NCBI GenBank assembly: GCA_029884335.1
Contig: JAOUIA010000030.1
Coordinates: 1-42,591, forward strand
From: Betaproteobacteria bacterium
GTDB taxonomy: Bacteria; Pseudomonadota; Gammaproteobacteria; Burkholderiales; Casimicrobiaceae
Length of the DNA stretch: 42,591 bases
Direction: 5' to 3'
The notes beneath the pieces are model-generated. The model was not told where the DNA came from. It ran no database searches and worked only from the letters and a program-made list of their open reading frames with translations. This document shows, in pieces, positions 1-33,986 of this stretch (its first letter is position 1; every line of letters begins with the position of its first letter). The translations under genes and the position numbers were made by a program.

Positions 1-2
1 TG

Positions 3-494
3 CTCGCCACGACGCGCCAGCCCGAGCGAGCTGCGGCACTGCGCGCCCAGGGCGTGGATCACGTGATCATCGACGACGGTCAGGTCGCGCGCGCCGTGCG
101 CGCCATCGCACCCGAAGGCGTGGACGCTGCGCTGGAACTGGTGGGCACGCCGACCTTGCCCGACACCTTGCGTGCCACGCGTGTGCACGGCACGGTCTGT
201 TTCACCGGCATGCTGTCCAACCGATGGACCGTCAGCGAGTTTTACCCCATCGACTACATCCCACGCGGCGTCAGGCTCACGGCCTACTCCGGCGGTGCCG
301 GCGACTTGCCGGCGCCGGTGCTGCAGGCCTATCTCGACCGCCTGGCCACAGGCGAGCTGGCGATCGGGCCGCTGCACCTCTACACGCTGGACGACATCCC
401 GCGGGCCCATGCGGACCTCGAACACAATCGTGTCTTCGGCAAGCTGGTGGGCGTGATCGACCCTGCCGGCCTCGCCACCACCGTACAGCGATAG
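3..494 (+). CDS. Zinc-type NAD(P)H quinone oxidoreductase / alcohol dehydrogenase, C-terminal part
   Basis: The gene enters from the left edge, so only the last ~163 residues are present. They match the C-terminal half of the MDR (medium-chain dehydrogenase/reductase) quinone-oxidoreductase branch. The end of the Rossmann fold is visible (AALRAQGVDHVIIDD, then VDAALELVGTPTLPDTLRAT and HGTVCFTGML), followed by the closing YTLDDIPRAHADLEHNRVFGKLV typical of ADH_zinc_N_2 proteins. Family members reduce quinones or enones with NADPH in the cytoplasm; the substrate here cannot be told. The first in-frame ATG (54) is internal to the fold and not the true start. A truncated homologue begins 7 bp downstream. 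Confidence 0.8.
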   Translation, partial: LATTRQPERAAALRAQGVDHVIIDDGQVARAVRAIAPEGVDAALELVGTPTLPDTLRATRVHGTVCFTGMLSNRWTVSEFYPIDYIPRGVRLTAYSGGAGDLPAPVLQAYLDRLATGELAIGPLHLYTLDDIPRAHADLEHNRVFGKLVGVIDPAGLATTVQR

Positions 495-501
495 GCCCAT
501 C

Positions 502-678
502 ATGCGAGCAGCCTGGTACGAGAGAAGAGGACCGGCGCGCGACGTTCTGGTGGTGGGTGACATGCCCACCCCCGAGCCCGGCGCAGGCGAGGTGCGCATC
601 CGACTGGCCTTCTCCGGCATCAACCCCGGCGACGTGAAGAAGCGCAGCGGCTGGCAAGGGTCTGGGCTATGCCAGTAG
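502..678 (+). pseudogene. Truncated quinone oxidoreductase, N-terminal fragment
   Basis: This 58-codon frame starts MRAAWYERRGPARDVLVVGD and continues to INPGDVKKRSGWQG. That is the standard N-terminus of a zinc-type quinone oxidoreductase (GroES-like domain, first ~50 of ~330 residues). After WQG the homology stops and the frame ends five codons later. The break at about 655-662 therefore looks like a deletion or insertion junction rather than a natural end. Downstream, in another frame, codons read SSDFAIERIIASLADAI and on to about 800, but I do not recognise that run. With the fragment just upstream this suggests two tandem oxidoreductases, the second destroyed by rearrangement at the edge of the accessory region. 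Confidence 0.7.
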
Positions 679-856
679 TGACTTTGCGATCGAACGCATC
701 ATCGCGTCACTGGCGGATGCAATCACGGAATCAGGAAAGATTTGTCCCGGATCGAGCCTCCTGCGCGGCAGAACAAAATGCCTGAATCAATACCTGCCTT
801 GACGGCAGCCGATTCAACGTCGCGGTCTTCGTCGAGATCATGCCAATACGCGTTCA

Positions 857-885
857 GTGACAAAAGTAGGACTGGGTGCTATACT
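857..885 (+). promoter_or_regulatory. Sigma-70-like promoter of the toxin-antitoxin operon
   Basis: GTGACA (857-862, one base from TTGACA) and TATACT (880-885) are separated by exactly 17 bp. The toxin ATG lies at 891, only 5 bp after the -10 box. Transcription from this promoter would start at or next to the ATG and give a leaderless message. No Shine-Dalgarno sequence is seen between the -10 box and the ATG. Confidence 0.6.
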
Positions 886-890
886 AAGCC

Positions 891-1262
891 ATGCCAAGAA
901 AACCTACGACGCGAGCTTTCAAGACGGCCTGGTTCAGCAAGGCAGCGAGGAAGGCGCGCATCGGTGATCCTGCATTGATCGCGGCGATCCGTGAGGTCAT
1001 GCAGGGACAGGCTGACGATCTGGGCGGGGGTGTGTTCAAGAAACGGCTGAACAAGAACATGCATCGTTCGATCGTGCTGGGAAAGGGCAGGCGGCATTGG
1101 GTGTTTGCGTATCTGTTCGCCAAGAAGGACCGGGCCAACATCGATGACGATGAGCTTGCAGATTTCAAGAAGCTGGCGCAGGCCTATGACCGCATGACGG
1201 ACTTCGAATTGGCGTCTGCACTTAGACAGGGTGACTTACTGGAGCTATGCGATGAAGAGTAA
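891..1262 (+). CDS. RelE-like toxin of a type II toxin-antitoxin system
   Basis: This 123-residue protein resembles the RelE family PF06296 (formerly DUF1044). Its core contains FKTAWFSKAARKARI, GQADDLGGGVFKKRL, HRSIVLGKGRRHWVFAYLFA and KKDRANIDDDELADFKKLA. Proteins of this group act as mRNA interferases paired with an Xre-type antitoxin; the function here is inferred from family and gene pairing. The toxin gene comes first, as in higBA systems. Its stop overlaps the antitoxin start by 11 bp, which suggests translational coupling. The start at 891 puts the family motif at residue 9 as expected, although it gives a nearly leaderless mRNA. Confidence 0.8.
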   Translation: MPRKPTTRAFKTAWFSKAARKARIGDPALIAAIREVMQGQADDLGGGVFKKRLNKNMHRSIVLGKGRRHWVFAYLFAKKDRANIDDDELADFKKLAQAYDRMTDFELASALRQGDLLELCDEE

Positions 1263-1575
1263 AGGCAAGTTTAAGAGCGACGCCTTCGAGGCGATCCATA
1301 GTGCAGCTCGAGGGCTGCATCGCGCCGGGACCATCGACAAGGCGACCATGCGCGAATTTGACGAATCGTGTCTGACGGCGCCGCCGGTGATCCCTCCAGA
1401 GGAGATCAAGCGAATCCGCGAAGGGGCGCATGTTAGCCAACCTGTTTTTGCGCGCTATCTGAACACCAGCGAGTCCACGGTACAAAAGTGGGAGGCCGGC
1501 ACCAAGCGGCCCAGCGGCATGGCGCTCAAGTTGCTGGCCGTGGTCGAGAAGCACGGGCTCAAAGTGTTGGCCTGA
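1252..1575 (+). CDS. Xre-family helix-turn-helix antitoxin
   Basis: This 107-residue DNA-binding protein is the cognate partner of the upstream toxin. The C-terminal half is a Cro/C1-type helix-turn-helix: IPPEEIKRIREGAHVSQPVF, then LNTSESTVQKWEAGTKRPSG. The N-terminal half (residues 1-45) would be the toxin-contacting part. The ATG at 1252 overlaps the toxin stop. An upstream in-frame ATG at 1231 lies inside the toxin gene and would only add seven residues. Antitoxins of this type normally repress their own promoter. Confidence 0.8.
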   Translation: MKSKGKFKSDAFEAIHSAARGLHRAGTIDKATMREFDESCLTAPPVIPPEEIKRIREGAHVSQPVFARYLNTSESTVQKWEAGTKRPSGMALKLLAVVEKHGLKVLA

Positions 1576-1630
1576 GCTTGAGACCAGTGCCCTGATTGAC
1601 TGCGGCCATCAATCCGCCACCCCGTGTGGT

Positions 1631-1848
1631 CTGACGGCAAAAATTTGATCGAAAACTCCTTTTACGACAAAAAGGTAGGCCATTTGATGACGGCGGTTTT
1701 TGGTGTTTTCCGCGCCGTTGGGCCCTCTGGAGAAGCGCCGTGACGGTAAAAATAATGACGAAGAAAAACGTCGAGACAAGAAGTTAGGTGATTTGATGCC
1801 GGCACTTTTCTTGCGCTATTTCGACCAGCGGCAGGGCTCGTTGACTCT
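1631..1848. repeat. Two diverged tandem units of 109 bp
   Basis: Unit 1 (from 1631) and unit 2 (from 1740) line up without gaps at a period of 109 bp. The motif [CG]TGACGG[CT]AAAAAT occurs at 1631 and 1740; GACAA at 1666 recurs at 1775; the block GG(T)AGGccATTTGATGaCGGC recurs 109 bp later as GTTAGGTGATTTGATGCCGGC. The region is clearly AT-richer than its surroundings and holds no convincing ORF. The TGACGGTA motif recurs in the larger dispersed repeats described below (1986, 3718), so these units probably belong to the same element family. Confidence 0.6.
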
Positions 1849-1869
1849 GCCAAAATGCATCGCGTGAAC

Positions 1870-2075
1870 CGATAGATCTCGATACATCTCGAAAGGTGAC
1901 CTGCACGACATCTTCGATTGATCTCGATACATCCCGATAGATGCTGAAAGCTGTTTTGGGGGATCAGATGAGATTGGCGGTAAATCTGACGGTAGAAATG
2001 GTAGTTGCAGAAAAAACTTCTCTATGTGACAACGGGTTGTCGGTGCCGTTGATGATCGAGTGGGAGTAGGGGTGT
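1870..2075 (+). repeat. Dispersed repeat, copy A (~206 bp)
   Basis: This copy begins with a 26-bp block (1870-1895) whose first half is CGATAGATCTCGATACATC. A second related block lies at 1916-1953. CTGACGGTAGAAA follows at 1986, and the copy closes with GTTGATGATCGAGTGGGAG from 2048 and then TAGGGGTG. The same landmarks occur at the same offsets (0, +46, +116/117, +178/179) in copy B at 3601, so the two copies are colinear with essentially one single-base indel. The copy lies between a toxin-antitoxin pair and a porin relic. No coding potential is apparent. The internally repeated blocks at one end resemble the multiple terminal repeats of IS21-type insertion sequences, but I cannot assign a family. 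Confidence 0.65.
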
Positions 2076-2207
2076 CGGACAGGCTGAAAAGTACAGCAAG
2101 AGAGCAGCGACTTGTGAGCGTCCATGATGACGTCGGCTCAATCTTCAATGAGCGCTGGTCAGGTCACGATTGCCCGATGCAGGCGATGCACGAGGACGCC
2201 CCGACCG

Positions 2208-2474
2208 TCAGAACGCCGCGCGCACCCGCAATCCGGAGACCCACACGCGGCCAATCGACGGGTTGTTCGCCGGATTGACGATCAGCTGAATGTCGGGCAC
2301 GAGCCGCAGGTGCTTCGAGGCTTGCCATCGCCAGTACGCTTCGAACGTGTACTGGTTCTCGCTGCTCCCGGGGGCGCGCGTCCGGGGATCGTTCAAGCCG
2401 GACCCAAACCTTCCGGCCGCCATCGTAGCTCTCCGGTCGTGCACGTTTCGGTAGCGAGCATCATAGGTTTTCAT
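2208..2474 (-). pseudogene. C-terminal relic of an OprB-like outer-membrane porin
   Basis: Read on the minus strand, the last ~60 codons give GLNDPRTRAPGS, NQYTFEAYWRWQASKHLRLV, PDIQLIVNPANNPSIGRVWV and SGLRVRAAF. This is the C-terminal beta-strand pattern of carbohydrate-selective OprB-type porins, including an outer-membrane terminal phenylalanine. The remaining ~380 residues expected of such a porin are absent: upstream frames (to about 2780) give no porin-like sequence. I therefore call it a relic. In another frame about 2524-2670 reads KPGGYFHGTIACPSALQLIV and on to a stop, which I do not recognise. The fragment suggests that a transport locus was lost here. Confidence 0.6.
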
Positions 2475-2803
2475 CGAGAAGCCCGCAAACGTCCGGTGAG
2501 CGGCGTCGAGCGGACACTCGATCAGAAAGTGGCGGCCGGCAGGAACGGGGCGGGTACGGGCTTCGGCCTCGCACCGACAACAATCAGCTGGAGCGCGCTC
2601 GGGCAGGCGATCGTCCCGTGGAAGTAGCCGCCGGGCTTCCGGTTCGGACCCCGCACCGTCTCGACAGTGCCGATCGGCTGGTCCGCTCACGCCGAGGCCC
2701 GACCGCGGGCTCCGAGCGCCAGCCGAAGGCACATAGGCGAACGCGCGGCGCGAAAGCCCACTTCTGCGCCGTGGGTCTGCTCATTGTTAATCACGCTTAA
2801 CGG
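2475..2803. other. Non-coding or decayed stretch between the porin relic and the higBA operator
   Basis: Open frames cross this stretch on both strands, but none has a recognisable fold or a consistent start. The only hint of former coding is the minus-strand run ending at the stop at 2522-2524 (GPNRKPGGYFHGTIACPSAL), cut off from any start. I see no RNA gene or repeat in it. Confidence 0.4.
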
Positions 2804-2824
2804 TAATAACGTATCGCGTTATTA
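2804..2824. promoter_or_regulatory. Inverted-repeat operator of the higBA locus
   Basis: TAATAACG (2804-2811) and CGTTATTA (2817-2824) form a perfect 8-bp inverted repeat with the 5-bp spacer TATCG. It lies 12 bp before the likely GTG start of the toxin frame, within AT-rich sequence suited to a promoter. Palindromes of this kind in front of higBA are where the HigA antitoxin dimer represses its own operon. The site still looks intact although the toxin gene is broken. Confidence 0.65.
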
Positions 2825-2835
2825 TTCTGCCAGTG

Positions 2836-3113
2836 GTGATCAGGACCCTCAAGCGTGCTGGCGCCGAAACGCTGTTCCGACTGCGGCGCGTGGTGTGCCT
2901 GCCAACGTCTAGCGCCCGGCGCTGCGCAAGTTGAAACAGGTCGACCTCGCGCGACGGATCGAGGACCTGCGCGCGGCGCCGGTGAACCGGCTTGGGCAGC
3001 TGAAGGGGGATCGCGCGGGCCAGTGGCGCCTGCGGATCAACGATCAGTTCCGCGTCGGCTCTCGCTGGACGGCAAGCGACGCCGAAGACGTCGAGATCGT
3101 AGATCGTCACTGA
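2836..3113 (+). pseudogene. higB: higB toxin gene, frameshifted and interrupted
   Basis: The gene starts GTG (2836) with IRTLKRAGAETLFR, the expected HigB/RelE N-terminus. The reading frame then shifts near 2880, and in the new frame ARGVPANV is followed by a TAG at about 2908. The rest continues in that frame as PALRKLKQVDLARRIEDLRA, LGQLKGDRAGQWRLRINDQF and DVEIVDRH to the stop at 3113. An intact HigB is ~92 residues. A TTG at 2931 could only express the last 60 residues, without the first helix. Either the toxin is dead or the assembly has errors at two places. The intact antitoxin follows 11 bp downstream. Confidence 0.7.
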
Positions 3114-3124
3114 GGCGAGACGAG

Positions 3125-3445
3125 ATGACCAGGAAACGCAAGCCGGTGCCGCCCGGCGAGATGCTCGCCGAGGAGTTCCTCAAGCCCTTGGGCATGAGCA
3201 ACTACCGCTTGGCGAAGGAGATCGGTGTGCCTGCGCAGCGCATTGGCGAGATCGTCGCCGGCAGGCGCGCCATCACTGCGGACACCGATCTGCGGCTGTG
3301 CCGCTTCTTCGGGCTTTCCGATGGCTGGTGGCTGCGCCTGCAGGCGGATTACGACACCGAGGTGGCGAAAGCGAGCCTGGCGAAGACGCTCGCGAAGATC
3401 AGACCGTGGAAGAAAGCATCGGAGAAGGCGGTGGATGTGCACTGA
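3125..3445 (+). CDS. higA: HigA-family antitoxin
   Basis: This 106-residue Xre-type protein has the HigA signature: PVPPGEMLAEEFLKPLGMSN, YRLAKEIGVPAQRIGEIVAG and RRAITADTDLRLCRFFGLSD. The helix-turn-helix spans residues ~25-60, followed by the dimerisation helix (WWLRLQADYDTEVAK). It normally neutralises HigB and represses the operon through the palindrome upstream. Here the partner toxin is interrupted, so the gene is an orphan antitoxin unless it controls another toxin. The ATG at 3125 is the family start; the open frame extends further upstream only by overlapping the toxin. Confidence 0.85.
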   Translation: MTRKRKPVPPGEMLAEEFLKPLGMSNYRLAKEIGVPAQRIGEIVAGRRAITADTDLRLCRFFGLSDGWWLRLQADYDTEVAKASLAKTLAKIRPWKKASEKAVDVH

Positions 3446-3600
3446 TCGCTGCGCTCGTGCGGCAGCGTCGTGACGGCGGGAGATTTGCCACAAGACCACG
3501 ATGCGACAACACGCCATGGCATCTGATGCCGGGGCCCTCTCGATCCCGACTCGAGGCCCCCGAGGCGCTGCTCCAATCTGCGGGATCGCATGCAAAGAAG

Positions 3601-3808
3601 CGATAGACCGCGATAGATCTCGAAAGCGAGCCATTGTGCAAGCGCCGATGGTTCTCGATCGATGTCGATCGATGGTGAAATCTGCGCGAGGGGATCCCAC
3701 TCGAAATCGCGGTACATCTGACGGTAAAACCAGCGCGGTTCGACGCGCTAGCCAAGCGAATCAATCGCTTGCAAGAGCTGTTGATGATCGAGTGGGAGCA
3801 GGGGTGCC
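3601..3808 (+). repeat. Dispersed repeat, copy B (~208 bp)
   Basis: Colinear with copy A. The 26-bp opening block is at 3601-3626 (CGATAGACCGCGATAGATC then TCGAAAG). The second block is at 3647-3684, where 29 of 38 bases match copy A. CTGACGGTAAAA is at 3718 and GTTGATGATCGAGTGGGAG at 3780, followed by CAGGGGTG. Copy B additionally contains a perfect 10-bp inverted repeat, TCCCACTCGA (about 3694) against TCGAGTGGGA (about 3790), that copy A lacks. It lies ~155 bp after higA and ends ~60 bp before the stop of a convergent regulator gene. The stretch 3446-3600 holds nothing else I can identify. Confidence 0.65.
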
Positions 3809-3867
3809 GCCCCCGTGGCGGGGCAGGGTGGGGGTCCGGCTCGCAGCCGCCTGCAACGTGACGCACG

Positions 3868-4533
3868 CTAGCCGAGCAAGCGTATCTTGCGGTAGCCGAC
3901 CTCGATCAAGCCGCGTTGCTGCAGGCGGCGGAGCAGCACGCTCAGCCGCTGCCGGGATACGCCAATCATCGTAGCCAGTTCCGACTGCGACAGGGTGATC
4001 GTAGGAGGCTTCCGCGAGGGCTGGTCGCGCCGCTGCAAATCGGCGACGGCTGCCAGTCGGACGCGCAACCACTCCTCGGTCTTCAGTCCGCGCACTTCGG
4101 CGGCAAACCGATACGCGAGCGCGAACCGCTCGCCCATCAGCATGGCGAAGGGCCTCAGGTAGCGCGGTTCCTCGTCGACGATCCGCTCGAATTCGGCCGC
4201 CGGCAGCACGAGCGCCCGGCAGGCGGTATCGGCGATGGCGCTGCCGAGGCTTGGCTGGCGGCAAACGGCGGCGTACTCGCCGAACCAGAAGCCGGGTTCG
4301 CCGACGTGCAGCAGGACCTCGCTGGCGTTGCCAGCCGACCGCAGGTGCCGGGTACGACCTTCGAGCAGGGCGAACATGCCCTTGCCGGACTCGCCTTCGC
4401 GGAGCAGGAATTCGCCCTTGCGGTAGGGCCGGACGGTCGAACGCTCGGCGATCAGCCTCTGCAAGTGCTCCGGCAGGTTGCCGAACCATTGACCGCGCTT
4501 CAGCAGTTCGAGATCTGTGTGTAGCGGGGCCAC
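3868..4533 (-). CDS. Crp/Fnr-family transcriptional regulator
   Basis: This 221-residue protein has an N-terminal cyclic-nucleotide-binding-type beta barrel (residues ~15-130: YRKGEFLLREGESGKGMFAL, then LHVGEPGFWFGEYAAVCRQP). A long dimer helix follows, then a C-terminal winged helix (~165-221: TLSQSELATMIGVSRQRLSV, LLRRLQQRGLIEVGYRKIRL). No N-terminal cysteine cluster for an Fe-S centre is seen, so it is not an Fnr-type oxygen sensor. The effector is unknown. The start is a GTG at 4533. The gene is divergent from the arylsulfatase, with 323 bp between them, and may control it; this is inference from position only. Confidence 0.85.
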   Translation of the reverse strand: MAPLHTDLELLKRGQWFGNLPEHLQRLIAERSTVRPYRKGEFLLREGESGKGMFALLEGRTRHLRSAGNASEVLLHVGEPGFWFGEYAAVCRQPSLGSAIADTACRALVLPAAEFERIVDEEPRYLRPFAMLMGERFALAYRFAAEVRGLKTEEWLRVRLAAVADLQRRDQPSRKPPTITLSQSELATMIGVSRQRLSVLLRRLQQRGLIEVGYRKIRLLG

Positions 4534-4856
4534 GACGCGTCCACGAGGGTCTGTTGCCGCGATTGTCTCAAACAGGACAACTTCGGGACAACAGATCGTC
4601 CAAACTCCGGCCCCTGGCTTCCGGATCGCAGCGTCCTAGCTGCGGCCTCGCAAGGCCGGCAAACAGTACTCCGGGGGACGCGTGTCGCCTCCATGGCGCC
4701 AGGAGTTCGAACGGGACCAGGAATTCGACCCCGCCTGTCCGACAATGGCGCCCGTGGATGGGGTGCCCGGCTCAACCTGATACTGCTGTTCCCGCAGTGA
4801 CCGACGTCCGGGCCACCCAAGAATCCGTATAGGCATACAACTGGAGAAAACGCTCC
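4534..4856. promoter_or_regulatory. Divergent control region with GTTGTC-type half-sites
   Basis: TTGTC (4563-4567) and GACAA (4576-4580) form an inverted repeat with an 8-bp spacer. A second GACAA follows at 4587-4591, so that on the minus strand GTTGTC occurs twice, 11 bp apart, followed by the inverted half-site. The sites lie 30-58 bp before the regulator's start, a sensible place for autoregulation. Towards the arylsulfatase a GGAG (4843-4846) sits 10 bp before its ATG. No small ORF or RNA gene is seen in the rest of this 323-bp gap. Confidence 0.4.
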
Positions 4857-6434
<1,578 letters not shown>

Positions 6435-6457
6435 GGCGCATCCTGTCGCGCTGACAA

Positions 6458-6499
6458 CCCGGTGCGGCGTACCGCGCGACGCGCCGTCGCCACACCGGG
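6458..6499 (+). other. Stem-loop between the arylsulfatase and DUF3604 genes
   Basis: CCCGGTG (6458-6464) pairs perfectly with CACCGGG (6493-6499). The enclosed sequence can add an inner GCGGCG/CGCCG(T) stem. No T-run follows, so it is not a standard Rho-independent terminator. It may protect or separate the upstream message. It lies in a 163-bp gap. Confidence 0.35.
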
Positions 6500-6597
6500 G
6501 CCGACGCGCGGCCGCCTTCCGAGAGCCGCTACGCCCGCCGCGATTCAATCAGATGCAATCCAGCCGCAGCGCAATATCGTTTGCTCATGGTAGACCG

Positions 6598-8520
6598 ATG
6601 ATGAAGACAAACATGCGCAATTGGACGATCGCGGGCGTGTGCGCTTTGATGTCTTCTGGCAATGCGCAGATCTGGGCGCAGGATGTCCCCGGGCCGGCGG
6701 ACAAGAAGATCATCTACTCGCCCTACCCGTCGAAGACCTTTCCGAACCGGGTCTATTTCGGCGACACGCACCTGCATACCTCATACTCCGCCGATGCCGG
6801 CATGGCCGGCGCCATCGTTGGACCTGAAGACGCTTATCGGTTTGCTCGCGGCGAAGAGGTCAAGTCCAACAGCGGGCTGCCCGTCAAGCTGTCGCGACCG
6901 CTCGATTTTCTGGTGATCGCCGACCACGCCGAGAACCTCGGCCTCGCGCCGATGATCGCGGAATCCGATCCCGCACTGCTCAAGTCGGAATGGGGCAGGA
7001 AGGTACACGACCTGGCCAAGACCGGCACCATCGAAGGACAGGGGGCAGCCTTCAACATGTGGATAGCCGCCATGCAGGAACTGAAGGATCCGTTCAAAGG
7101 CCAGGAAGATTCGATGGCTCGCCCGGCCTGGAAGCGCCTCACTGCGGCAGCCGAGAAGTACAACGAACCCGGCCGCTTTAGCGCCATCATCGGCTACGAG
7201 TGGACCTCGGGACCGGATGGCAACAACCTGCACCGCAACGTCCTGTTCCGCGACGGCAAGGACAAGGCCGACCAGATCATCCCGCTGTCCTACTACGACA
7301 CCGGTGACCCCGAGGACCTGTGGAAGTGGATGGCTGCCTACGAGCAGAAGACCGGTGGCAAGGTGCTGGCCATTCCGCACAACGGCAATCTGTCGAACGG
7401 CCTGATGTTCGACGATGTCACGCTCAGCACCAGGAAGCCGCTCGACCGCGATTACGCAGAGCGCCGCATGCGCTGGGAGCCGATCTACGAAACCACCCAG
7501 CCCAAGGGCGACGGCGAGACGCACCCGGCGCTGTCGCGCAACGACGAGTTCGCCAATTTCGAACGCTGGGACAAAGGCAGCTTCGGACCTGTGCTGAAGA
7601 CGCCCGACATGCTGCCACGCGAATACACCCGCGAGGCGCTCAAGCGCGGACTGGCCTACGAGGCCAAGCTCGGCGTCAATCCTTTCAAGTTCGGCCTGAT
7701 CGGCTCGACCGATATGCATACCGGCCTCGCCACCACCACCGAGGACAACTTCTTCGGCAAGGTGGCCGTGCTGGAGCCCTCCGCCGACCCGATCCGTTTC
7801 GATGAAGTGATCGTTGGCCGGGTGCCGGCCGATCGCGCGCGCAGCAATCAGCACCTCGCACGCGAGACCAGTGCATCGGGCTTGGCGGCCGTCTGGGCAC
7901 GCGACAACACGCGTGAAGCGCTGTGGGACGCGATGGCGCGCAAGGAAGTCTACGCCACCACCGGCACGCGCCTGCAGGTGAGGGTGTTCGGTGGCTTCGA
8001 CTTCACGGCCAAGGACTTGGAACGCTCCGACTTCGCCGAGCAGGGCTACCAGCGCGGCGTGCCGATGGGGGGTGACTTGAAGGCAGCACCGGCGGGCAGG
8101 GCCCCCACGATGCTGATCCGCGCGATGCGTGACGCCGACGGTGCCAACCTCGACCGTGTACAGGTCGTCAAGGGCTGGCTCGATGCGGCAGGCAAGACGC
8201 ACGAGAAGATTTACGACGTGGCCTGGTCCGGCAACCGCAAGCCAGGCAAGGACGGGAAGCTGCCGCCGGTGGGCAACACGGTCGACGTCAAGGAGGCGAG
8301 CTATACCAACGCTATCGGCGCTCCGTACATCACCGCGTACTGGAAGGACCCCGTCTTCGACCCGAAGCAGCGCGCCTTCTACTACGTGCGCGTCCTCGAG
8401 ATCCCGACGCCGCGCTGGACCACCTTCGACGCCAAGGCCTTCGGTGTCAAGCTGCCCACCGACGTGCCCGCGAGCATTCAGGAACGTGCCTACACGTCGC
8501 CGATCTGGTACACCCCGTGA
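6598..8520 (+). CDS. Exported DUF3604 protein
   Basis: This 640-residue protein starts at 6598 (ATGATG), chosen because it gives a signal-peptide-like N-terminus (residues 1-28, ending IWAQ-DV). An open frame from 6553 would add 15 polar residues. The DUF3604 domain starts with RVYFGDTHLHTSYSADAG (H58, H60) and continues with FLVIADHAENLG, GYEWTSGPDGNNLHRNVLF, VLAIPHNGNLSNGLMF and LIGSTDMHTGLATTTEDNFF. The HxH, DH and later histidines resemble a PHP-type metal site, so a hydrolase is likely, but no activity is established that I can rely on. It follows the sulfatase by 163 bp. Confidence 0.82.
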   Translation: MMKTNMRNWTIAGVCALMSSGNAQIWAQDVPGPADKKIIYSPYPSKTFPNRVYFGDTHLHTSYSADAGMAGAIVGPEDAYRFARGEEVKSNSGLPVKLSRPLDFLVIADHAENLGLAPMIAESDPALLKSEWGRKVHDLAKTGTIEGQGAAFNMWIAAMQELKDPFKGQEDSMARPAWKRLTAAAEKYNEPGRFSAIIGYEWTSGPDGNNLHRNVLFRDGKDKADQIIPLSYYDTGDPEDLWKWMAAYEQKTGGKVLAIPHNGNLSNGLMFDDVTLSTRKPLDRDYAERRMRWEPIYETTQPKGDGETHPALSRNDEFANFERWDKGSFGPVLKTPDMLPREYTREALKRGLAYEAKLGVNPFKFGLIGSTDMHTGLATTTEDNFFGKVAVLEPSADPIRFDEVIVGRVPADRARSNQHLARETSASGLAAVWARDNTREALWDAMARKEVYATTGTRLQVRVFGGFDFTAKDLERSDFAEQGYQRGVPMGGDLKAAPAGRAPTMLIRAMRDADGANLDRVQVVKGWLDAAGKTHEKIYDVAWSGNRKPGKDGKLPPVGNTVDVKEASYTNAIGAPYITAYWKDPVFDPKQRAFYYVRVLEIPTPRWTTFDAKAFGVKLPTDVPASIQERAYTSPIWYTP

Positions 8521-8541
8521 CGGGGTCCCAGGCGAAGGCTT

Positions 8542-8727
8542 CTTCATGAACCCCTGCTGCACTTCCTGATCCTCGGCGCGCTGCTGTTCAGCCTGTGTTC
8601 GTGGATCAACCGCGGCGCGGCCGAGGCGCCCGGCGCTGTGCGACGCCCTGACGTCGAGATCGCCGCCGCGCACTGGACGCGGGCAAGACGTTGGCGGGTG
8701 CCTCGAAGCCGCTACCGTCGGCGTTGA
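8542..8727 (+). pseudogene. N-terminal relic of a PpiC-like peptidyl-prolyl isomerase
   Basis: The frame reads HEPLLHFLILGALLFSLCSW, then INRGAAEAPGAVRRPDVEIA, and stops at 8727. This is the membrane-anchored N-terminus commonly seen in parvulin-type (PpiC/SurA-like) isomerases that follow DUF3604 genes: a short cytoplasmic LREPLLHFL-type start, one transmembrane helix, then the beginning of the periplasmic part. There is no start codon at the expected place, and the parvulin domain (~200 residues) is missing. I call it a decayed remnant. Confidence 0.5.
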
Positions 8728-9316
8728 CCGGCCTGGCGGCCTGGCCGGTCAGCTCCTGGGCCTGGACGGCGTCGCTGCCGGCGTGACCGACGCCGTCGTC
8801 CGCGTCGCGCGCCAGGATGGCAGCGGCCGGAGCAAGCGCCTGCTGCGCGGGCGCACGGAATTCACAGTGAAGCCGGCCAGAGGTGTTTCCGAGCTTCGAT
8901 ACATCGTGGCGACCGTTCAGTCGAGCCCGCACGGTCGCACGGGTATGGAGTGCCCGCAATGCGTTGGACAGCGGCCGCGCGGGCGGGCGTGGTGACAGGC
9001 AGCACCCGGCCAGGTTTCGAATTTGACGCCAGGCCCCCCGATGACCGCTTGGTGCCGCACGCCGGGCTTCCAGATCGCGGACATACGCGGCAGTAGCCGA
9101 CGCGAAGCCGCCCTTTGCGAGGCGCGGGCCTAACGTGGACAATCCACCCCCTGGCTGCCGGGAGCTCATCGACGAGAGGGACATTCCGGAATGTCGGCGG
9201 CGCGGCAAGGCGCAGGCGGAAGACGCCGCGCGAAAGCGACGAAGCCCGCCGAAGCCTGTCCATTGCCAAGCGTTGGCGATTATTTCCCGTCAGGCACTTA
9301 TTGCTTGGATGAAGGT
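8728..9316. other. Gap with no supported gene before the AraC-type regulator
   Basis: This 589-bp stretch follows the isomerase relic. A 200-codon minus-strand frame (8606-9208) is open but has low-complexity Arg/Ala/Pro-rich content and no recognisable domain, so I do not accept it. The end of the stretch must carry the promoter of the regulator gene; no clear -35/-10 pair stands out. Confidence 0.4.
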
Positions 9317-10327
9317 ATGGCTGACCGCGATCAACCCGGCGCCTGGTTATTGAGGGCCTTCGCCATGGGCGGGGTCGACGTACAGGAACTGTTCCGGAGA
9401 CTCCCGAAGCAGATGGATCTGGCGACGCGTGCGCCCGAGACGCTCACGCCCGACGTGGTCAACGCCATCCTTCTCGAATGCGCATCGCTCAGCGCGGACG
9501 ACAACTTCGGCTTGCGCATGGTCGAACTGGCTGGCCCATCGGACCTCGGTATCTATGGGTACCTTCTGATGAACGCGCCAACAGTGGGCGAGGCACTGGA
9601 GATTGCCTGCCGGTACTACCCGACGTTCTATCTTGGCGCAACGCTGCGTCTCTCCGTCGGCAGGGGGGTGGCCAGGCTCACCTATCGGACCAAGGCCCGC
9701 TCGGCCCTGTCGGCGCGACATGACAACGAATGGAGCCTCGGGTTCTTCGTGCAGGTCATCAGGCGTGGAACCTCCGCCGACTGGACGCCGGCAAGTGCCT
9801 CATTCACGCATTCGGCGCCGGAGGACATGAGCGAGCAGATCCAGCTCTTCGGCGCGAACCTCCACTTCGGGCAAGCGACGAATTGCATCGAGTTCCCGGC
9901 GGACGTTCTGCGGTGTCGCGTCAGCGAGGCAGATCCCAGTCTGCTTAGGGTGCTGCTCCAGCAAGCCGACGGTCTGCTTCACAGGGTGCAGAAGGAGGAA
10001 ACACTGGCGGACCAGGTCAGGTTGCTGATCCTCGAACACCTGGACAAGGGGCCGGGTGACGCGGCAGGTGTCGCTCGCAAGCTGAGGATGTCGGTCAGCA
10101 CTTTGAAGCGCCGCCTGAAGCAGGAGGGCACCAGCTATCGCGAACTGCGTGACGGCGTCGTGAGGAATCTCTCCCAGTCGGCCCTCAGGGAGACCCAGGT
10201 ACCCATCAGCGAGATCGCGATGCGAGTCGGTTACTCGGAACTCAGTGCCTTCGACCGGGCGTTCAATCGATTGGCCGGCATGACGCCCCGGCAATACCGG
10301 GCAACACAAGCCCGGAAGACCGGATAG
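9317..10327 (+). CDS. AraC-family transcriptional regulator (OruR/ArgR-like type)
   Basis: This 336-residue protein has an N-terminal ligand-binding domain of the Arabinose_bd type (PF12625): LLRAFAMGGVDVQELFRRLP, then FGLRMVELAGPSDLGIYGYL and APTVGEALEIACRYYPTFYL. A C-terminal AraC DNA-binding domain (residues ~235-330) has both helix-turn-helices: GVARKLRMSVSTLKRRLKQE and ISEIAMRVGYSELSAFDRAF, followed by GMTPRQYR. The ATG at 9317 is preceded by GAAGG; the open frame runs back to 9191, but that extra part is basic and low in complexity. Its position between the DUF3604 gene and the DUF1254 gene on the same strand suggests it governs one or both. Confidence 0.85.
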   Translation: MADRDQPGAWLLRAFAMGGVDVQELFRRLPKQMDLATRAPETLTPDVVNAILLECASLSADDNFGLRMVELAGPSDLGIYGYLLMNAPTVGEALEIACRYYPTFYLGATLRLSVGRGVARLTYRTKARSALSARHDNEWSLGFFVQVIRRGTSADWTPASASFTHSAPEDMSEQIQLFGANLHFGQATNCIEFPADVLRCRVSEADPSLLRVLLQQADGLLHRVQKEETLADQVRLLILEHLDKGPGDAAGVARKLRMSVSTLKRRLKQEGTSYRELRDGVVRNLSQSALRETQVPISEIAMRVGYSELSAFDRAFNRLAGMTPRQYRATQARKTG

Positions 10328-10629
10328 GGCGCCGGCCCGCGCGTGGATTCTGGGCCCTGTCTTGAAGGCGGCAGCGCAGCGAGTTGATCCAAAATGTCAA
10401 TAACTTGAGCTGAATTGTCAAGTATTGGAGTCCGCAATGGGGGCCCATATCGGGCCCCGAAAAAGACCCGGGGGCGCGCGGCGCAGGCCTTGGGCGATGC
10501 AGCACTGTGCCCTTGTGGAGTCAGGCCAGGCCCATGCGTCATGGCGGCCTTGGACGGCGTCCGATGGTTGGGGCATGCGTGCCGCCTGCAAGGAAACTGC
10601 AAGCAGGTGAAGGCGGTGCAAACGTGACC
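10328..10629 (+). promoter_or_regulatory. Control region of the DUF1254 gene with two inverted repeats
   Basis: An imperfect inverted repeat, CAATAACTTGA (10398-10408) against TCAAGTATTG (10418-10427), lies in an AT-rich patch. It is a plausible binding site for the AraC-type regulator encoded just upstream. A perfect 7-bp stem follows (GGGGCCC at 10440-10446, loop ATATC, GGGCCCC at 10452-10458) with no T-run behind it. The gap holds no supported ORF. Confidence 0.4.
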
Positions 10630-12162
10630 ATGAAGAGAAACGGAATGATGAATCTCAAAGCGACGGCAATGTCCGCACTCACCCTCTTTGGCGCGCTCGC
10701 GTCGGTCTGCGCCAGCGCCGCCGATGCGCCAAAGTTCAAGGCGGACGTTCCCGCGTCGGTCACGACGCCGGACAAGGTCCGCACCGAGTTGCTCGGCGAT
10801 CTCGACTTCTTCGACGGCATGCCGAGCAAGAGCACCATCAAGAAGGCCTACGACTTCCTTGACACGTCCCGTGGCGCGGAAGCCTTCCTCAACGGCATTC
10901 CCGCCGCTTCAATCTACGCGGTCCTCGAAGGGATCAAGGCGGCCGGGGTCAATGTAGGCGATCTAGGCATTTTCGAGGAGTTGATGGATGCGCGCTCGCT
11001 CTACCTGACCCCCAACTCGACCACCATCTACAACATGTTCGAGATCAACGTCAAAGAAGGGCCCATCGTCGTGGAGGTCCCGGCGGGCGTGCTCGGCCCC
11101 GTCGACGACGCCTACTTCCGCTTCGTCACGGACTTCGGCTTCACCGGTCCGGACCAGGGCAAGGGCGGCAAGTACCTGTTCGTGCACCGCGACTACAAGG
11201 GTGAGCTGCCGGAAGGATATTTCGTGGTGAGAACCCCGAACTACCGCAACCTGTCGTTCTTCCGTGCTTTCGTAAAGGATGGCGATCTGAAGGCGGCGGC
11301 GGACAACGTCAAGAAGGGCTTCCGCACCTATCCGCTGGCTAAGGCGGCGAACCCGCCCAAGCAGCGCTTCGTCAACCTCTCCGGCAAGCGGATGAACACC
11401 GTCCATGCCAACGATTTCCACTTCTTCGAGGAACTCAACGCGGTGATCCAATACGAGCCGGCCGATTCGTTCGACCCGGAACTGGTCGGGCTCTTCGCCG
11501 CGATCGGCATCAAGAAGGGGCAACCCTTCAACCCCGATGCCCGCATGAAGAAGCTCCTCGTCGAAGGCGTGGCCATCGGCAATGCCACGGCCCGCGCGAT
11601 CACCTTCGCTCCGCGCAATCCGCGTTACTACTTCTGGCCCGATCGCAAGTGGAACTCCATGTTCGCCGGCGGCGGCAACTATGCCTTCTACGACGACGGC
11701 GAGCGCATGCTCGACGACCGCATCTTCATGCACTACTACGCTACGGGGATCACTCCGGCCATGACCGCACCCAAGGTAGGTACGGGCTCGGTCTACGGGA
11801 TCGCCGCGCAGGACGTGAACGGGGACTTCCTCGATGGCGGCAAGACCTACTCGGTCACGCTTCCGGGTCCGGTCCCGGCCAAGGATTTCTGGTCGTTCAT
11901 GGTCTATGACGGCCAGCACCGCTCCATGCTCGAGACCGACCAGAAGACCGCCGGCCTCGACAGCCTGAACCCCTCCGTCAAGCCCAACGCCGACGGCTCT
12001 TACACGATGTGGTTCGGCCCGAGGGCACCGGAAGGCAAGGCAGGCAACTGGATCCAGACCATGCCTGGCAAGAGCTACAACGTGCTGATTCGCCTCTATG
12101 GGCCGCTCCAGCCATTCTTCGACAAGACATGGAAGCCGGGCGACTTCGAGCTCGTGAAGTAG
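10630..12162 (+). CDS. Exported DUF1254/DUF1214 domain protein
   Basis: This 510-residue protein has a signal peptide (TAMSALTLFGALASVCASAA, cleavage near residue 37). The N-terminal DUF1254 part holds EELMDARSLYLTPNSTTIYN and FRFVTDFGFTGPDQGKGGKY. The C-terminal DUF1214 part holds TYSVTLPGPVPAKDFWSFMV, then YDGQHRSMLE and SYTMWFGPRAPEGKAGNWIQ. Families with this pair are widespread exported proteins without a settled biochemical role. The start is uncertain: ATG at 10630, 10645 or 10648 all lie just before the signal peptide, and a GTG is at 10624. Repeat copy C follows 84 bp after its stop. Confidence 0.82.
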   Translation: MKRNGMMNLKATAMSALTLFGALASVCASAADAPKFKADVPASVTTPDKVRTELLGDLDFFDGMPSKSTIKKAYDFLDTSRGAEAFLNGIPAASIYAVLEGIKAAGVNVGDLGIFEELMDARSLYLTPNSTTIYNMFEINVKEGPIVVEVPAGVLGPVDDAYFRFVTDFGFTGPDQGKGGKYLFVHRDYKGELPEGYFVVRTPNYRNLSFFRAFVKDGDLKAAADNVKKGFRTYPLAKAANPPKQRFVNLSGKRMNTVHANDFHFFEELNAVIQYEPADSFDPELVGLFAAIGIKKGQPFNPDARMKKLLVEGVAIGNATARAITFAPRNPRYYFWPDRKWNSMFAGGGNYAFYDDGERMLDDRIFMHYYATGITPAMTAPKVGTGSVYGIAAQDVNGDFLDGGKTYSVTLPGPVPAKDFWSFMVYDGQHRSMLETDQKTAGLDSLNPSVKPNADGSYTMWFGPRAPEGKAGNWIQTMPGKSYNVLIRLYGPLQPFFDKTWKPGDFELVK

Positions 12163-12583
12163 GCGAACGAGAATCCTCAAGTAGCAAGTGGCCCGAATTT
12201 CTCGGGGCAGGTCACGTCGATGCTGTCGCCGATGGGCCTGGGAGTCGATAGACGTCGATAGATCGCGGAAGTTCGGCTCTGGTCGATTGCGCCGGCAACC
12301 CGCGCCAGTGCTGATGCTTCACAGATCGACGGCAGTAGTGGCGGCAACAGCCTGCGAGGCGATGCATCGTCCAATACGAGTCAACAGCTCAAAGTGCTCG
12401 TTGATAATCGAGCGGGAGTCGGGGTTCTTCGCTCTCGATCGCGCGGCTGGGAGGCCGGCCGCTCTTCACGCGCTGGACGCGGCGCTGCGTGAGGCCGAGC
12501 TCGGCCAGGTGCGATACGCGGCGGCGCGGTGGGTTCGCCACAACGGGCGAGGTGGTTGCGCACGAAGGCGCCGACGCGACGAA
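12163..12583. other. Gap holding repeat copy C, no supported gene
   Basis: Between the DUF1254 gene and the convergent sugar-dehydrogenase gene, the only structure I can support is repeat copy C (12246-12427). Open frames on both strands here are by-products of high G+C. The GC-rich 12430-12583 part shows partial self-complementarity near 12465-12505 but no T-tailed terminator. Confidence 0.4.
12246..12427 (+). repeat. Dispersed repeat, copy C (diverged, ~182 bp)
   Basis: The 26-bp opening block at 12246-12271 (CGATAGACGTCGATAGATC then GCGGAAG) matches copies A and B without gaps. A degenerate TCGACGGCAGTA motif is at 12326. The closing block GTTGATAATCGAGCGGGAG starts at 12400 and is followed by TCGGGGT, as in A and B. 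The spacing between the first and second landmarks is 36 bp shorter, and between the second and third 12 bp longer, than in A and B, so this is an older or different family member. Same orientation as the others. Confidence 0.55.
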
Positions 12584-14305
12584 TCAACGATCGATGCGGA
12601 TGAGCTTGCCGCTGTCGGTGAGCAGGTAGAGCCAGCCGTCGGGACCCTGTCGCACGTCGCGGATGCGCTCGCCCAGGCTGCCGAACAGCCGCTCCCGCGA
12701 ACCCACGACGTTGCCGTCGAGCGTGACGCGCCACAGCGCCGTGCCGGCAAGCGCGCCGAACAGGACGTTGCCGTGCCACTCGGGGAACTTGTCGCCGGTG
12801 TAGAAGACCATCCCGGCCGGTGCGGTGGACGTCGGCACCCAGTAGGCGGCGGGCTCGACGAAGCTCGGTGCATGCGTGCCTCCGCCGACCCGGCACGCTT
12901 CACCCACCGGCGAGCCATACGGGCAACCGTAGCTGCGCAGCGGCCAGCCGTAGTTGCCGCCGGGCACGACGCGGTTGAGCTCGTCGCCCCCCTGCGGGCC
13001 GTGCTCGTTCAGCCAAAGGTCGCCCGTCACCGGATGGATCGCCGCGCCTTGCGGGTTGCGGTGGCCGATGCTCCACAACGCCGGCTGCGCGCCTGCGCCG
13101 AAGGCGGGATTTCCCGGCAGGATCGAGCCGTCGCGAGCGATGCGCACCACCTTGCCGAGGTGATTGGCGACGTTCTGCGCGTACTGCGTCGTGGGGTTCG
13201 CCGGATTGTCGTACTGGCGCTCGCCCAGCGTGACCAGCAGCGACCTGTCTGCGCGGAACGCCAGCCGCGAGCCGTAGTGTCCGGCACCCGCGAGTTTCGG
13301 CAGCTGACGGAAGATGACTTCCACGTTCTGCAGCGCCGTGCCGACCAGCCGTCCGCGCGCGACCGCGGTTCCGCTGCCGCCGGTCCCGGTCTCCGCGTAG
13401 GTCCAGTAGATCCACGGATTCGCGACGAGATCGAAGTCCGGGTCGAGCGCGACGTCGAGCAGGCCGCCCTGTCCAGCCGAGTCGACCGCAGGCACGCCGC
13501 TCAGAGTGGCCAGGATGGATGCCCCGTCGGGGCTCAGAAGAAGCATCGAGCCCGCCTTCTGCGTGACGAGCATGCGGCCATCGGGCAGGAACGCGAGCCC
13601 CCAGGGACTGGCGAGCGACGCGTTGAGCGTCACCGCCCTCGGCGGCCGCAGCGACGCGTACTCGGCGACGCTGGCGCGCAACTGGCACTGCGCCTGCGCA
13701 AGCGGCCCCGAGCCCGGAAAGCTGCCGCGGCGCACGCGCACCGCAACCTCGCCTGCGACGTTCGCCGGCAGCACGATCTGGCCGTGCAACCGCGCGTTCT
13801 GCCAGTCGCTCGACGCCGGACCACCCATCGCGAGACTCGCGGCGGACAGGGGCGCGAACGCAGCGGTGCCGAGGCGGCCGACCACCTCGGCCAGGTACTG
13901 AACGTTCGTGCCCGTCGCGCTCAGCGAGACGTCGACCGTTGCGGTCCGCACCTGTGGTCGCGCCGGCAGGGCCAGCGTGCAGAGCGTCGCGGACGCGTCG
14001 AGGTCCAACGCGGCACCCGAGGCTTCGACGATGCGAACGTCGGGCGTGAGCGCGCTGCCGAGGCGGTTCATGAACGCCGCCATCTGCAGGCGGGTCACGT
14101 TGCCCGACGGGCAGTACGACGTGCCGCCCGCCACGCATCCCAGTGTCACACCGCGGTTGCGGATCCACTCGACGTTGCGGCACATGGCGTCGTCGAGGTC
14201 CACGTCGCCGAAGCCCGCGCAGGCTTGCGCCGCGGTCGCGGCCGGGCTCGCGCCCAGCCACGCCGCGGCGAGCAGCGTGCCAAGCGGCGGCAGCGAGATG
14301 CGCAT
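12584..14305 (-). CDS. Secreted PQQ-dependent sugar (aldose) dehydrogenase-like protein with N-terminal SLH-like module
   Basis: This 573-residue protein has a signal peptide (residues 1-~28, LLAAAWLGASPAATA). An SLH-like module follows: CAGFGDVDLDDAMCRNVEWI, RNRGVTLGCV, YCPSGNVTRLQMAAFMNRLG. A beta-rich stretch reaches to ~230. The C-terminal ~340 residues are a GSDH-type six-bladed propeller: SPWGLAFLPDGRMLVTQKAG, GGLLDVALDPDF, GHYGSRLAFRADRSLLVTLG, WSIGHRNPQGAAIHPVTGDL and GPDGWLYLLTDSGKLIRI. Family members oxidise sugars with PQQ in the periplasm; the substrate is unknown. Residues 1-230 are paralogous to the whole protein encoded just upstream, so the gene looks like a fusion. ATG at 14305; 11 bp separate it from the upstream stop. 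Confidence 0.85.
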   Translation of the reverse strand: MRISLPPLGTLLAAAWLGASPAATAAQACAGFGDVDLDDAMCRNVEWIRNRGVTLGCVAGGTSYCPSGNVTRLQMAAFMNRLGSALTPDVRIVEASGAALDLDASATLCTLALPARPQVRTATVDVSLSATGTNVQYLAEVVGRLGTAAFAPLSAASLAMGGPASSDWQNARLHGQIVLPANVAGEVAVRVRRGSFPGSGPLAQAQCQLRASVAEYASLRPPRAVTLNASLASPWGLAFLPDGRMLVTQKAGSMLLLSPDGASILATLSGVPAVDSAGQGGLLDVALDPDFDLVANPWIYWTYAETGTGGSGTAVARGRLVGTALQNVEVIFRQLPKLAGAGHYGSRLAFRADRSLLVTLGERQYDNPANPTTQYAQNVANHLGKVVRIARDGSILPGNPAFGAGAQPALWSIGHRNPQGAAIHPVTGDLWLNEHGPQGGDELNRVVPGGNYGWPLRSYGCPYGSPVGEACRVGGGTHAPSFVEPAAYWVPTSTAPAGMVFYTGDKFPEWHGNVLFGALAGTALWRVTLDGNVVGSRERLFGSLGERIRDVRQGPDGWLYLLTDSGKLIRIDR

Positions 14306-14316
14306 CGTGCCGCTCG

Positions 14317-14985: not shown

Positions 14986-15397
14986 GCTGATCTCCTCGCT
15001 TTCCGCACGAGTTGCCGCAACTCGTTTTCGCGCGCGAGTTTCGACTCTAGGCGAAGCGTTGCGCCGCGACAATGGCCGATGGCCTCCGAGCGTGGCCGCC
15101 CGGAGGACGAGTTCGGCCGCCCGTCGGGCGGTGGGTCGTCGTGGTCCGAGACACACGAAACGCGGGATTGAGTGAGGAGCGCTCCCCGGTGGACGCAGGT
15201 GCGCGCCGCGGATGGAAACACCGAGCCGTGGCCGGAACTGCATGCCCGGTCCGCTATCCCGGGCTCCAGGCGAGAAGTGGCAGCCGGCCGCCATGCACTC
15301 GGGGGCACTCCGCGGACTCTGCCGGGGCTGGCGGTGCCGCGCCGACCAGAGACGCGCGTTCCGTACGGGCGGCCGCGACGGGCACGGCGGTCACGCG
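14986..15397. promoter_or_regulatory. Upstream region of the SLH-like operon with a perfect palindrome
   Basis: CGAGTTGC (15008-15015) and GCAACTCG (15017-15024) are perfect inverted repeats separated by one base. They lie 23-39 bp before the ATG of the SLH-like protein on the minus strand. The position suits an operator or a leader hairpin. The rest of this 412-bp gap up to the GGDEF-EAL gene stop (15398) shows no supported gene. Confidence 0.4.
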
Positions 15398-17560: not shown

Positions 17561-17772
17561 GGCGGGATCGGGGAAGCCGGGCCCCTCCCTGCCGGGGCCG
17601 CGGGAATGGAATCGCAATTGACGTGCCACGGGCGGCGCCCCGGGGGGTGCAGCCGACGTCCGGAGCCGCGTCCCTCAAGCCTGCTGCGCACCCGGGGGAC
17701 GCTCGGGCGCGGCGTGCGGCGACGCGGATGGTCCCGCATGCCCTAGACTGCGCGCTGACAACGGATCCCCCG

Positions 17773-28225: not shown

Positions 28226-28279
28226 GGGGTTGCATCTTGTCGCACGCCCGCGGCGGCGCTGGCGTCGTCGTTGCTCCAG

Positions 28280-30583: not shown

Positions 30584-33986
<3,403 letters not shown>

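What the first reader, a model, noticed from the sequence alone, without database searches (positions are those of the whole stretch)
1870..12427. Unidentified ~180-208 bp repeat family, three same-orientation copies dividing the accessory region
Copies at 1870-2075, 3601-3808 and 12246-12427 share a gapless 26-bp opening block (consensus about CGATAGAyskCGATAsATC) and a closing block GTTGATrATCGAGyGGGAG followed by a GGGGT run. A and B are colinear over their whole length (landmarks at offsets 0, 46, 116/117 and 178/179), with 29 of 38 bases identical in the second block. C is more diverged. No ORF is inside. The intervals between copies hold a porin relic plus higBA, and the sulfatase/DUF3604/AraC/DUF1254 genes. 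Possible explanations: ends or non-autonomous derivatives of an insertion sequence (the doubled opening blocks recall IS21-type ends), a cassette boundary, or a structured RNA. I could not match it to a family by memory.
Basis: seen in the sequence. Interest (0 to 1): 0.7.

Follow-up and report, generated by a model that had tools for sequence, protein, structure and literature searches.

The report
Attachment sites of guaA genomic islands
The three repeats are recombination sites at which small mobile gene packages were stacked one after another behind the housekeeping gene guaA; the insertion spot and enzyme family are known, but stacks of such small packages without an enzyme of their own, some carrying anti-phage or toxin-antitoxin genes, are a less familiar form.

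Summary
The repeats are real (for A-B, A-C and B-C, 0 of 1000 shuffles reach the observed score), but the evidence is against IS ends and against an RNA. Their closing block copies the last codons of guaA (GMP synthase..IEWE-stop) and holds GAGTGGGA, the published core of guaA-inserted islands of the GIsul2 kind (PMC9376610). Each copy is a right-hand attachment site: 190-430 bp of P arm (10-bp-spaced CGATAGATCT iterons, TGACGGTAAAA repeats), then the core. The window's contig overlaps the end of the guaA contig by 127 bp, putting copy A about 7.5 kb past guaA. Wherever guaA and a copy share a contig (9 of 9 genomes), the copy is downstream on the same strand. In 6 of 19 genus tails guaA runs straight into the window's 32.65-kb region. 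A tyrosine integrase stands right behind guaA in several relatives, but none was found there in this genome. The same cargo left ends follow both guaA cores and internal cores. Best reading: a tandem array of integrase-less units (CIMEs), moved in trans by guaA-specific integrases. New variant of a known kind; movement is untested.

The parts
1630..2065 (+). Site A: attR-type attachment site. Duplicated upstream block (1630-1700, 1739-1809), iterons 1870-1895 and 1915-1950, TGACGGTAAAA-type repeats 1975-1997, core GAGTGGGA 2058-2065
3471..3797 (+). Site B: attR-type attachment site. Upstream block 3471-3532, iterons 3601-3626 and 3646-3681, TGACGGTAAAA-type repeats 3709-3729, core GAGTGGGA 3790-3797
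   Evidence: 85-88% identical relatives in G089, G014, G018
12213..12417 (+). Site C: diverged attR-type site, iterons 12246-12271, core GAGCGGGA (one mismatch) 12410-12417; last detectable site of the array
   Evidence: 72% identical over 205 bp to a G019 site
1..2065 (+). Right part of unit 1 (guaA to A, about 7.7 kb; the left part, with LysR and NmrA-type genes, is on contig C17). Window part: RelE-family toxin 891-1262 and HTH antitoxin 1231-1575
   Evidence: 127-bp contig overlap; Pfam
2066..3797 (+). Unit 2 (A to B, 1.7 kb): OprB porin relic 2208-2732 (minus) and HTH antitoxin gene 3124-3445 of a higBA-like pair (the toxin half gave no Pfam match in the frames sent)
3798..12417 (+). Unit 3 (B to C, 8.6 kb): sulfatase 4857-6434, DUF3604 6553-8520, AraC 9191-10327, DUF1254/DUF1214 10507-12162
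32205..33098 (+). DUF2087 plus TadA-like deaminase: the region from about 32650 on directly follows guaA in six relatives, so what lies between guaA and here is extra relative to them

Best explanation
Each copy is the right-hand attachment site (P arm plus core, attR type) of an element integrated at the 3' end of guaA. The array reads guaA - unit 1 - A - unit 2 - B - unit 3 - C, all in one direction. Mechanism: a tyrosine integrase of the guaA/GIsul2 kind recombines the core GAGTGGGA of a circular element with the same core at the end of guaA, or at an att site already there. Each integration rebuilds the last guaA codons (E-W-E-stop) from the element and leaves another core copy at the far end. 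The iterons of the P arm, and their inverted versions in the P' arm behind guaA, would be the sites where the integrase's arm-binding domain or an AlpA-type factor assembles. No integrase was found in this genome's array, so the units would be cis-mobilizable elements (CIMEs), stacked by accretion and movable only with an integrase supplied by another guaA island. SHOWN: core identity with guaA, linkage and orientation, uninterrupted sites in relatives, integrase next to guaA in relatives, cargo left ends exchanged at the core. INFERRED: what binds the iterons, mobilisation in trans, present-day activity. The confidence given is for the identity as guaA-type att sites.
For: (1) The closing block is the guaA 3' end: 13 of 13 guaA tails in the first set read ..P(A/G)TIEWE-stop and carry GAGTGGGA. 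(2) Window contig C34 starts with the same 127 bp that end guaA contig C17, with no other full-length match in the genome, placing the window 5.6 kb past guaA. guaA on C17 is followed at once by inverted iterons at about +19, +29, +39, +105. (3) In 9 of 9 genomes with guaA and a copy on one stretch (G009, G014, G019, G100, G101, G108, G153, G209, FR_12), copies lie downstream on the same strand, 1.3-100 kb away. (4) 6 of 19 guaA tails read in the genus (G007, G011, G013, G017, G020, G021) run within 1 kb into homologues of window 32.65 kb onward. (5) Phage_integrase genes follow guaA in G014, G107, G104, G102 and, in pieces, G101; the three other intact ones are 95, 89 and 63% identical to the first; the G107 protein has arm-binding and catalytic domains. 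Of 11 integrase matches in 369 genomes of the class, 5 of 5 at 54% identity or more lie beside a guaA tail (three same strand, two convergent), 0 of 6 at 43% or less within the fetched 1.5-kb flanks. (6) Cargo exchange at the core: an AbiEi-type cassette starts right after the guaA core in G019 and G108 and after internal cores in G014 and G205; a GGGGACGA.. left end follows guaA cores in G100 and FR_12 and internal cores in G018 and G103, with close variants at G018 guaA and an internal G100 core. (7) Published: core GAGTGGGA; the GIsul2 integrase excises and integrates an integrase-less unit bounded by such sites (PMC9376610, passages).
Against: No excision or circle was observed. Sites A and B have no P' iterons behind the core, and C's core has a mismatch, so some may be dead. 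Only 9 of 49 sites have four or more P'-iteron matches downstream; counts of 1-2 also occur behind uninterrupted guaA tails, so they mean nothing. The Caulobacter copy (G102) is on another contig than guaA and has little P arm. In all, eleven genomes (G102 among them) have copy and guaA on different contigs, and in five with copies no guaA was found, so these cannot be judged. About 20 kb between C and the TadA region carry no further att site. Most sites were fetched with patterns taken from the closing block, so its conservation is inflated by selection. Four core-like sites have no P arm (L056, L057, L070, L082). Short matches in G073 and G075 (24 and 32 bp) were dropped. The genome is a draft; an integrase on an unassembled piece cannot be excluded.
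Confidence: 0.93

Rival explanations
1. Ends or non-autonomous derivatives of an insertion sequence or Tn7/IS21-type transposon with multiple transposase-binding repeats.
For: Repeated 10-bp iterons, with inverted versions on the other side, resemble transposon ends.
Against: Copies lie in one orientation (in the window the best minus-strand match to the 18-bp core pattern has 4 mismatches, at 7795), downstream of one gene; the core equals that gene's 3' end; a tyrosine integrase sits beside the matching arm in relatives.
Confidence: 0.03
2. A conserved structured RNA.
For: A hairpin-like CAAC...GTTG inverted repeat lies just before the core.
Against: No Rfam family in the window at gathering score; inner stem pairs no better than shuffled columns (0.70 against 0.714); the outer stem hardly varies, so it is uninformative. 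The whole element was not tested with a covariance model.
Confidence: 0.02
3. Dead relics (compatible with the sites being att sites): sites of islands that arrived with their own integrase and lost it; nothing moves now and sharing between genomes reflects homologous recombination.
For: Mismatch in C's core, missing P' iterons at A and B, porin relic, a disrupted integrase beside guaA in G006 and a broken one in G101.
Against: The same cargo left ends joined to guaA and to internal cores, where the left sides are different sequences, point to a junction at the core itself.
Confidence: 0.3

Closest known systems
GIsul2 and the CR2-sul2 unit at guaA (PMC9376610; abstract, outline and passages seen)
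   Same: Insertion at the guaA 3' end, core GAGTGGGA, integrase beside guaA, an internal third att site bounding an integrase-less unit that the integrase moves
   Different: The G107 integrase is 53.7% identical to that of the GIsul2-like island on plasmid R485; here at least five successive sites in one array (G100), no integrase found in the window's array, TA or defence genes among the cargo instead of resistance genes
ICERspD18B in Rheinheimera (PMC7775301; passages seen)
   Same: guaA 3' end, 20-bp repeat with GAGTGGGA, P4-type integrase plus AlpA; it cites Song et al. 2012 (not seen by me) for guaA as an island site
   Different: A 28.5-kb self-transmissible element with its own integrase
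ssrA genomic islands of Dehalococcoides (PMC3146451; passages seen)
   Same: Tandem islands downstream of one gene, marked by repeats of its 3' end; 15 without an integration module, proposed as cis-mobilizable elements
   Different: Serine recombinase, ssrA target, other cargo
CIMEs and tandem accretion (review PMC5704250; passages seen)
   Same: att-bounded elements that lost integration and transfer genes, stacked by site-specific accretion; the review also lists tyrosine-integrase elements at guaA
   Different: No guaA array of such small units appears in the passages seen

Membership tests
guaA-associated genomic islands (GIsul2 kind) | Inserted at the 3' end of guaA | tested here: met
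   Contig overlap C17/C34, arm directly behind guaA, 9 of 9 linked genomes in the right place and strand, uninterrupted sites in 6 of 19 genus tails
guaA-associated genomic islands (GIsul2 kind) | Core GAGTGGGA at the boundaries | tested here: met
   Exact at guaA, A and B; one mismatch at C
guaA-associated genomic islands (GIsul2 kind) | Tyrosine integrase next to guaA | tested here: not met
   Met in relatives, but in this genome only two Phage_integrase hits, on C14 and C70, none near guaA or in the window, and no match to the G107 integrase at E 1e-60. So the window's units are not filed as complete guaA islands but as integrase-less derivatives
guaA-associated genomic islands (GIsul2 kind) | alpA beside int | not tested
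   Seen in the annotation of the Sphingomonas and R485 relatives; not looked for in the window's genome
guaA-associated genomic islands (GIsul2 kind) | Excises as a circle | not testable with these tools
   Needs PCR or reads
Cis-mobilizable element (CIME) | Bounded by att sites, lacks integrase and transfer genes | tested here: inconclusive
   att sites present; no integrase on C34 or the C17 tail; transfer genes were not searched for
Insertion sequence ends | Transposase between inverted terminal copies | tested here: not met
   No inverted-orientation copy in the window; the window and C17 ORFs tested gave no transposase family; no IS database was searched
Structured RNA family | Covarying helices or a known family | tested here: not met
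   (only the repeat before the core was tested for covariation)
Integron cassette array | IntI plus attC sites | not tested
   The site is explained by guaA; no IntI or attC search was run

The most novel reading that the evidence does not exclude
The guaA 3' end works in these proteobacteria as an integron-like platform: a standing array of short units, many carrying toxin-antitoxin or anti-phage genes, each marked by a long conserved P arm and core, and gained, lost and shuffled in trans by passing guaA islands rather than by a resident integrase.
Probability: 0.3. Interest if true: 0.7.

Novelty: new variant of a known kind. Interest (0 to 1): 0.45.

Why it matters
It turns an unexplained repeat into a readable boundary marker: searching for the P arm plus core finds small, integrase-less mobile units that a search for integrases would miss. 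In the array of one genome (FR_11, G100) the units hold a TOTE-type primase-helicase, an SNF2 helicase resembling ZorD/DpdE models, an IrrE-domain regulator and a small protein with weak matches to a candidate defence model; other units start with AbiEi. So the marker may help find defence genes, though no enrichment was tested. It also gives a natural test of whether guaA integrases spread cargo beyond the resistance unit already shown for GIsul2.

Tried and rejected
IS or transposon ends: rejected (orientation, target, integrase). Structured RNA: Rfam gave nothing; inner-stem covariation absent. Coding remnant: the closing block translates as LMIEWE-stop, which looked like an ORF tail; it proved to be the guaA 3' end reproduced in the att core. 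Integron attC: considered early, dropped without a test once guaA was recognised. Viral contigs: 0 matches to the core pattern. The first literature search by generic cassette words listed nothing on point. A further att site after C was looked for in the window; none. Arm sequence changing with the integrase: in G786 (54% integrase) the arm behind guaA has TGGCACTGGCAGGCACC-like repeats instead of CTATCG; suggestive but a single case. In the alignment the G014 copy was entered on the wrong strand, so that row is not used. In one search the 49 sites were chosen from 67 by having P-arm motifs (14 guaA tails and 4 others dropped), so the share with such motifs is not evidence.
Full report
THE OBSERVATION. 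Against 1000 dinucleotide shuffles each, A-B scores 64 (best shuffle 27), A-C 42 (30) and B-C 37 (33); no shuffle reaches the observed score.

WHAT THE CLOSING BLOCK IS. In a relative (G009) the same block was found once without the repeat's left part, as the tail of a reading frame ..KPPATIEWE-stop. That is the C terminus of GMP synthase, guaA. Of 16 genomes asked, 13 had a guaA match, and all 13 tails read ..P(A/G)TIEWE-stop and carry GAGTGGGA. Behind the stop codon the repeat's iterons stand in inverted orientation clearly in G000, G014, G101, G103, G104 and G107, weakly in G009 and G102, and not in G018, G019, G100, G105 and G108 (read). In G000 they stand about 19, 29, 39 and 105 bases behind the core.

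LINKAGE. In the window's genome guaA lies on contig C17. The last 127 bases of C17 equal the first 127 of the window's contig, and the only other match in the genome is a 40-bp partial one. The window therefore most likely begins 5.6 kb behind guaA. In nine genomes guaA and at least one copy share a stretch (G009, G014, G019, G100, G101, G108; G153 and G209; FR_12, locus L052), and in 9 of 9 the copies are downstream on the same strand, 1.3 to 100 kb away. Other genomes with copies have guaA on another contig, or no guaA was found (G015, G089, G106; G228, G389). Several of the guaA contigs end at or just behind guaA (G119, G205; G103). The Caulobacter copy (G102) does not fit: guaA and copy are on different long contigs, and the copy has little P arm.

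UNINTERRUPTED SITES. Of 20 guaA matches in the genus I could read 19 tails. In G007, G011, G013, G017, G020 and G021 guaA runs within 1 kb into homologues of the window from 32.65 kb on, which encodes a TadA-like deaminase behind a DUF2087 stretch. The other 13 have too little downstream sequence, other neighbours, or insertions. So the stretch from guaA to about 32.6 kb of the window is extra DNA relative to these six. Three of the six (G011, G013, G021), and none of the other 13 tails, have GAATGGGA instead of GAGTGGGA, which may protect them. Site C at 12.4 kb is the last att site detected; the 20 kb behind it are not explained by this work.

THE INTEGRASE. A Phage_integrase gene stands behind guaA on the same strand in G014, G107, G104 and G102 (Caulobacter), its frame opening about 240-265 bp after the guaA stop, and in pieces in G101 (Marinobacter). 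In G006 the frame is disrupted. The three other intact proteins are 95, 89 and 63% identical to the first, and the G107 protein carries the Arm-DNA-bind_3 and Phage_integrase domains. Searching 369 genomes of the class gave 11 matches in 10 genomes at E 1e-60 or better. All five at 54% identity or more lie beside a guaA tail, three on the same strand and two convergent; of the six at 43% or less none does within the fetched 1.5-kb flanks. The window's genome has only two Phage_integrase hits, both on other contigs, and no match to this integrase at that threshold.

SITE ANATOMY. Relative to the core, iterons CGATAGATCTCGA lie at about -188/-178 and -143/-133 (A, B and relatives) or -163/-153 (C type), 10 bp apart, and TGACGGTAAAA-type repeats at about -83 and -71. 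This spacing suggests protein bound on one face of the helix; which protein is not known. One search found 67 core-like sites: 14 guaA tails, 49 with P-arm motifs (the criterion for keeping them) and 4 without. Of the 49, 21 have two or more and 9 have four or more P'-iteron matches within 170 bp downstream; because uninterrupted guaA tails also show up to two by chance, only the 9 count. Core conservation is partly built in by the search patterns; sites found by overall DNA similarity instead (G089, G014, G018, G015, G019) show the same layout. A strict pattern, which finds only A of the window's three, gave 18 sites in 13 of 399 genomes of the order and 0 for the reversed control pattern. 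The CAAC...GTTG repeat before the core does not covary in its inner part.

EXCHANGE AT THE CORE. Two cargo left ends recur behind different left contexts. An AbiEi-type gene starts right after the guaA core in G019 and G108 and after internal cores in G014 and G205; the family search was done on the G019 copy only (PF09407 and PADLOC AbiEi), the others were recognised by their near-identical starts. A GGGGACGA... end follows guaA cores in G100 and FR_12 and internal cores in G018 and G103, with close variants at the guaA core of G018 and an internal core of G100. The sequences left of the core (guaA or P arm) are unrelated, so the exchange point is at the core.

KNOWN RELATIVES. Zhang et al. 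(PMC9376610; abstract, outline and passages) show that the GIsul2 integrase recombines sites sharing GAGTGGGA at the guaA 3' end, and that a third internal site lets it excise and insert an integrase-less unit. A GIsul2-like island annotated on plasmid R485 has an integrase 53.7% identical to that of G107, with alpA, repA, repC, trbJKL, ars genes, an IS91-like transposase and sul2. ICERspD18B (PMC7775301, passages) reports the same core and cites Song et al. 2012, which I did not see. Tandem integrase-less islands behind ssrA in Dehalococcoides (PMC3146451, passages) and CIME accretion (PMC5704250, passages) are the closest concepts. Among the papers listed by searches I saw no title or abstract opening that describes an array of small integrase-less units at guaA; the last three lists were cut (15 of 1506, 12 of 20, 12 of 38), so this is weak evidence of novelty.

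CARGO. Unit 1 has LysR and NmrA-type genes on C17 and ends with a RelE-family toxin and an HTH antitoxin; unit 2 holds an OprB relic and the HTH antitoxin gene of a higBA-like pair; unit 3 a sulfatase, DUF3604, AraC and DUF1254/DUF1214. Unit 3 thus carries no defence gene among those tested. The array of FR_11 (G100; five sites with the exact core, and a sixth with a changed core) holds a TOTE-type primase-helicase, an SNF2 helicase similar to ZorD/DpdE models, an IrrE-domain regulator and a small protein with weak PDC-S70 matches; of the 14 G100 proteins tested with Pfam, 8 gave no family. No enrichment test for defence genes was done.

VERDICT. Attachment sites of tandem, apparently integrase-less elements at guaA: confidence 0.93 that they are guaA-type att sites; trans-mobilisation is inferred; whether the array still moves is open.

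Noticed in passing
L157 (NZ_CP155767.1, 3975 bp): A Sphingomonas parapaucimobilis record listed as a complete circular plasmid holds only guaA, a 71%-identical integrase and alpA, with a single GAGTGGGA core; an odd record, or an assembly artefact.
   Followed up: partly
guaA tails of G011 (L117), G013 (L109), G021 (L112): Three uninterrupted guaA genes have GAATGGGA in place of the core GAGTGGGA; a synonymous change in the Glu codon that might block integration.
   Followed up: partly
window 12418-32204: About 20 kb between the last att site and the guaA-neighbour region carry GSDH, VIT1 and two Crp-type genes but no further att site; its origin is open.
   Followed up: partly
window 18959-28225 (+): A mechanical ORF of 3088 aa; not examined.
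   Followed up: no
window 32205-33098 (+): DUF2087 and a TadA-like deaminase lie in one open frame, possibly fused.
   Followed up: no
L120 (G006) and L009 (G015): A HigB-like reading frame runs into a disrupted guaA-type integrase in G006, and similar DNA follows the att core in G015; the name HigB is recalled, not from a family search.
   Followed up: no
L082 position 66, L056 1498, L057 1498, L070 1498: Core-like sites without P-arm repeats and not at guaA; possible secondary integration sites or left ends.
   Followed up: no
L127 (G103:C84): The contig begins inside a guaA-type integrase and continues with a large frame that looks like a PHP/ATPase protein (recalled); the family search failed on wrong coordinates and was not repeated.
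   Followed up: no
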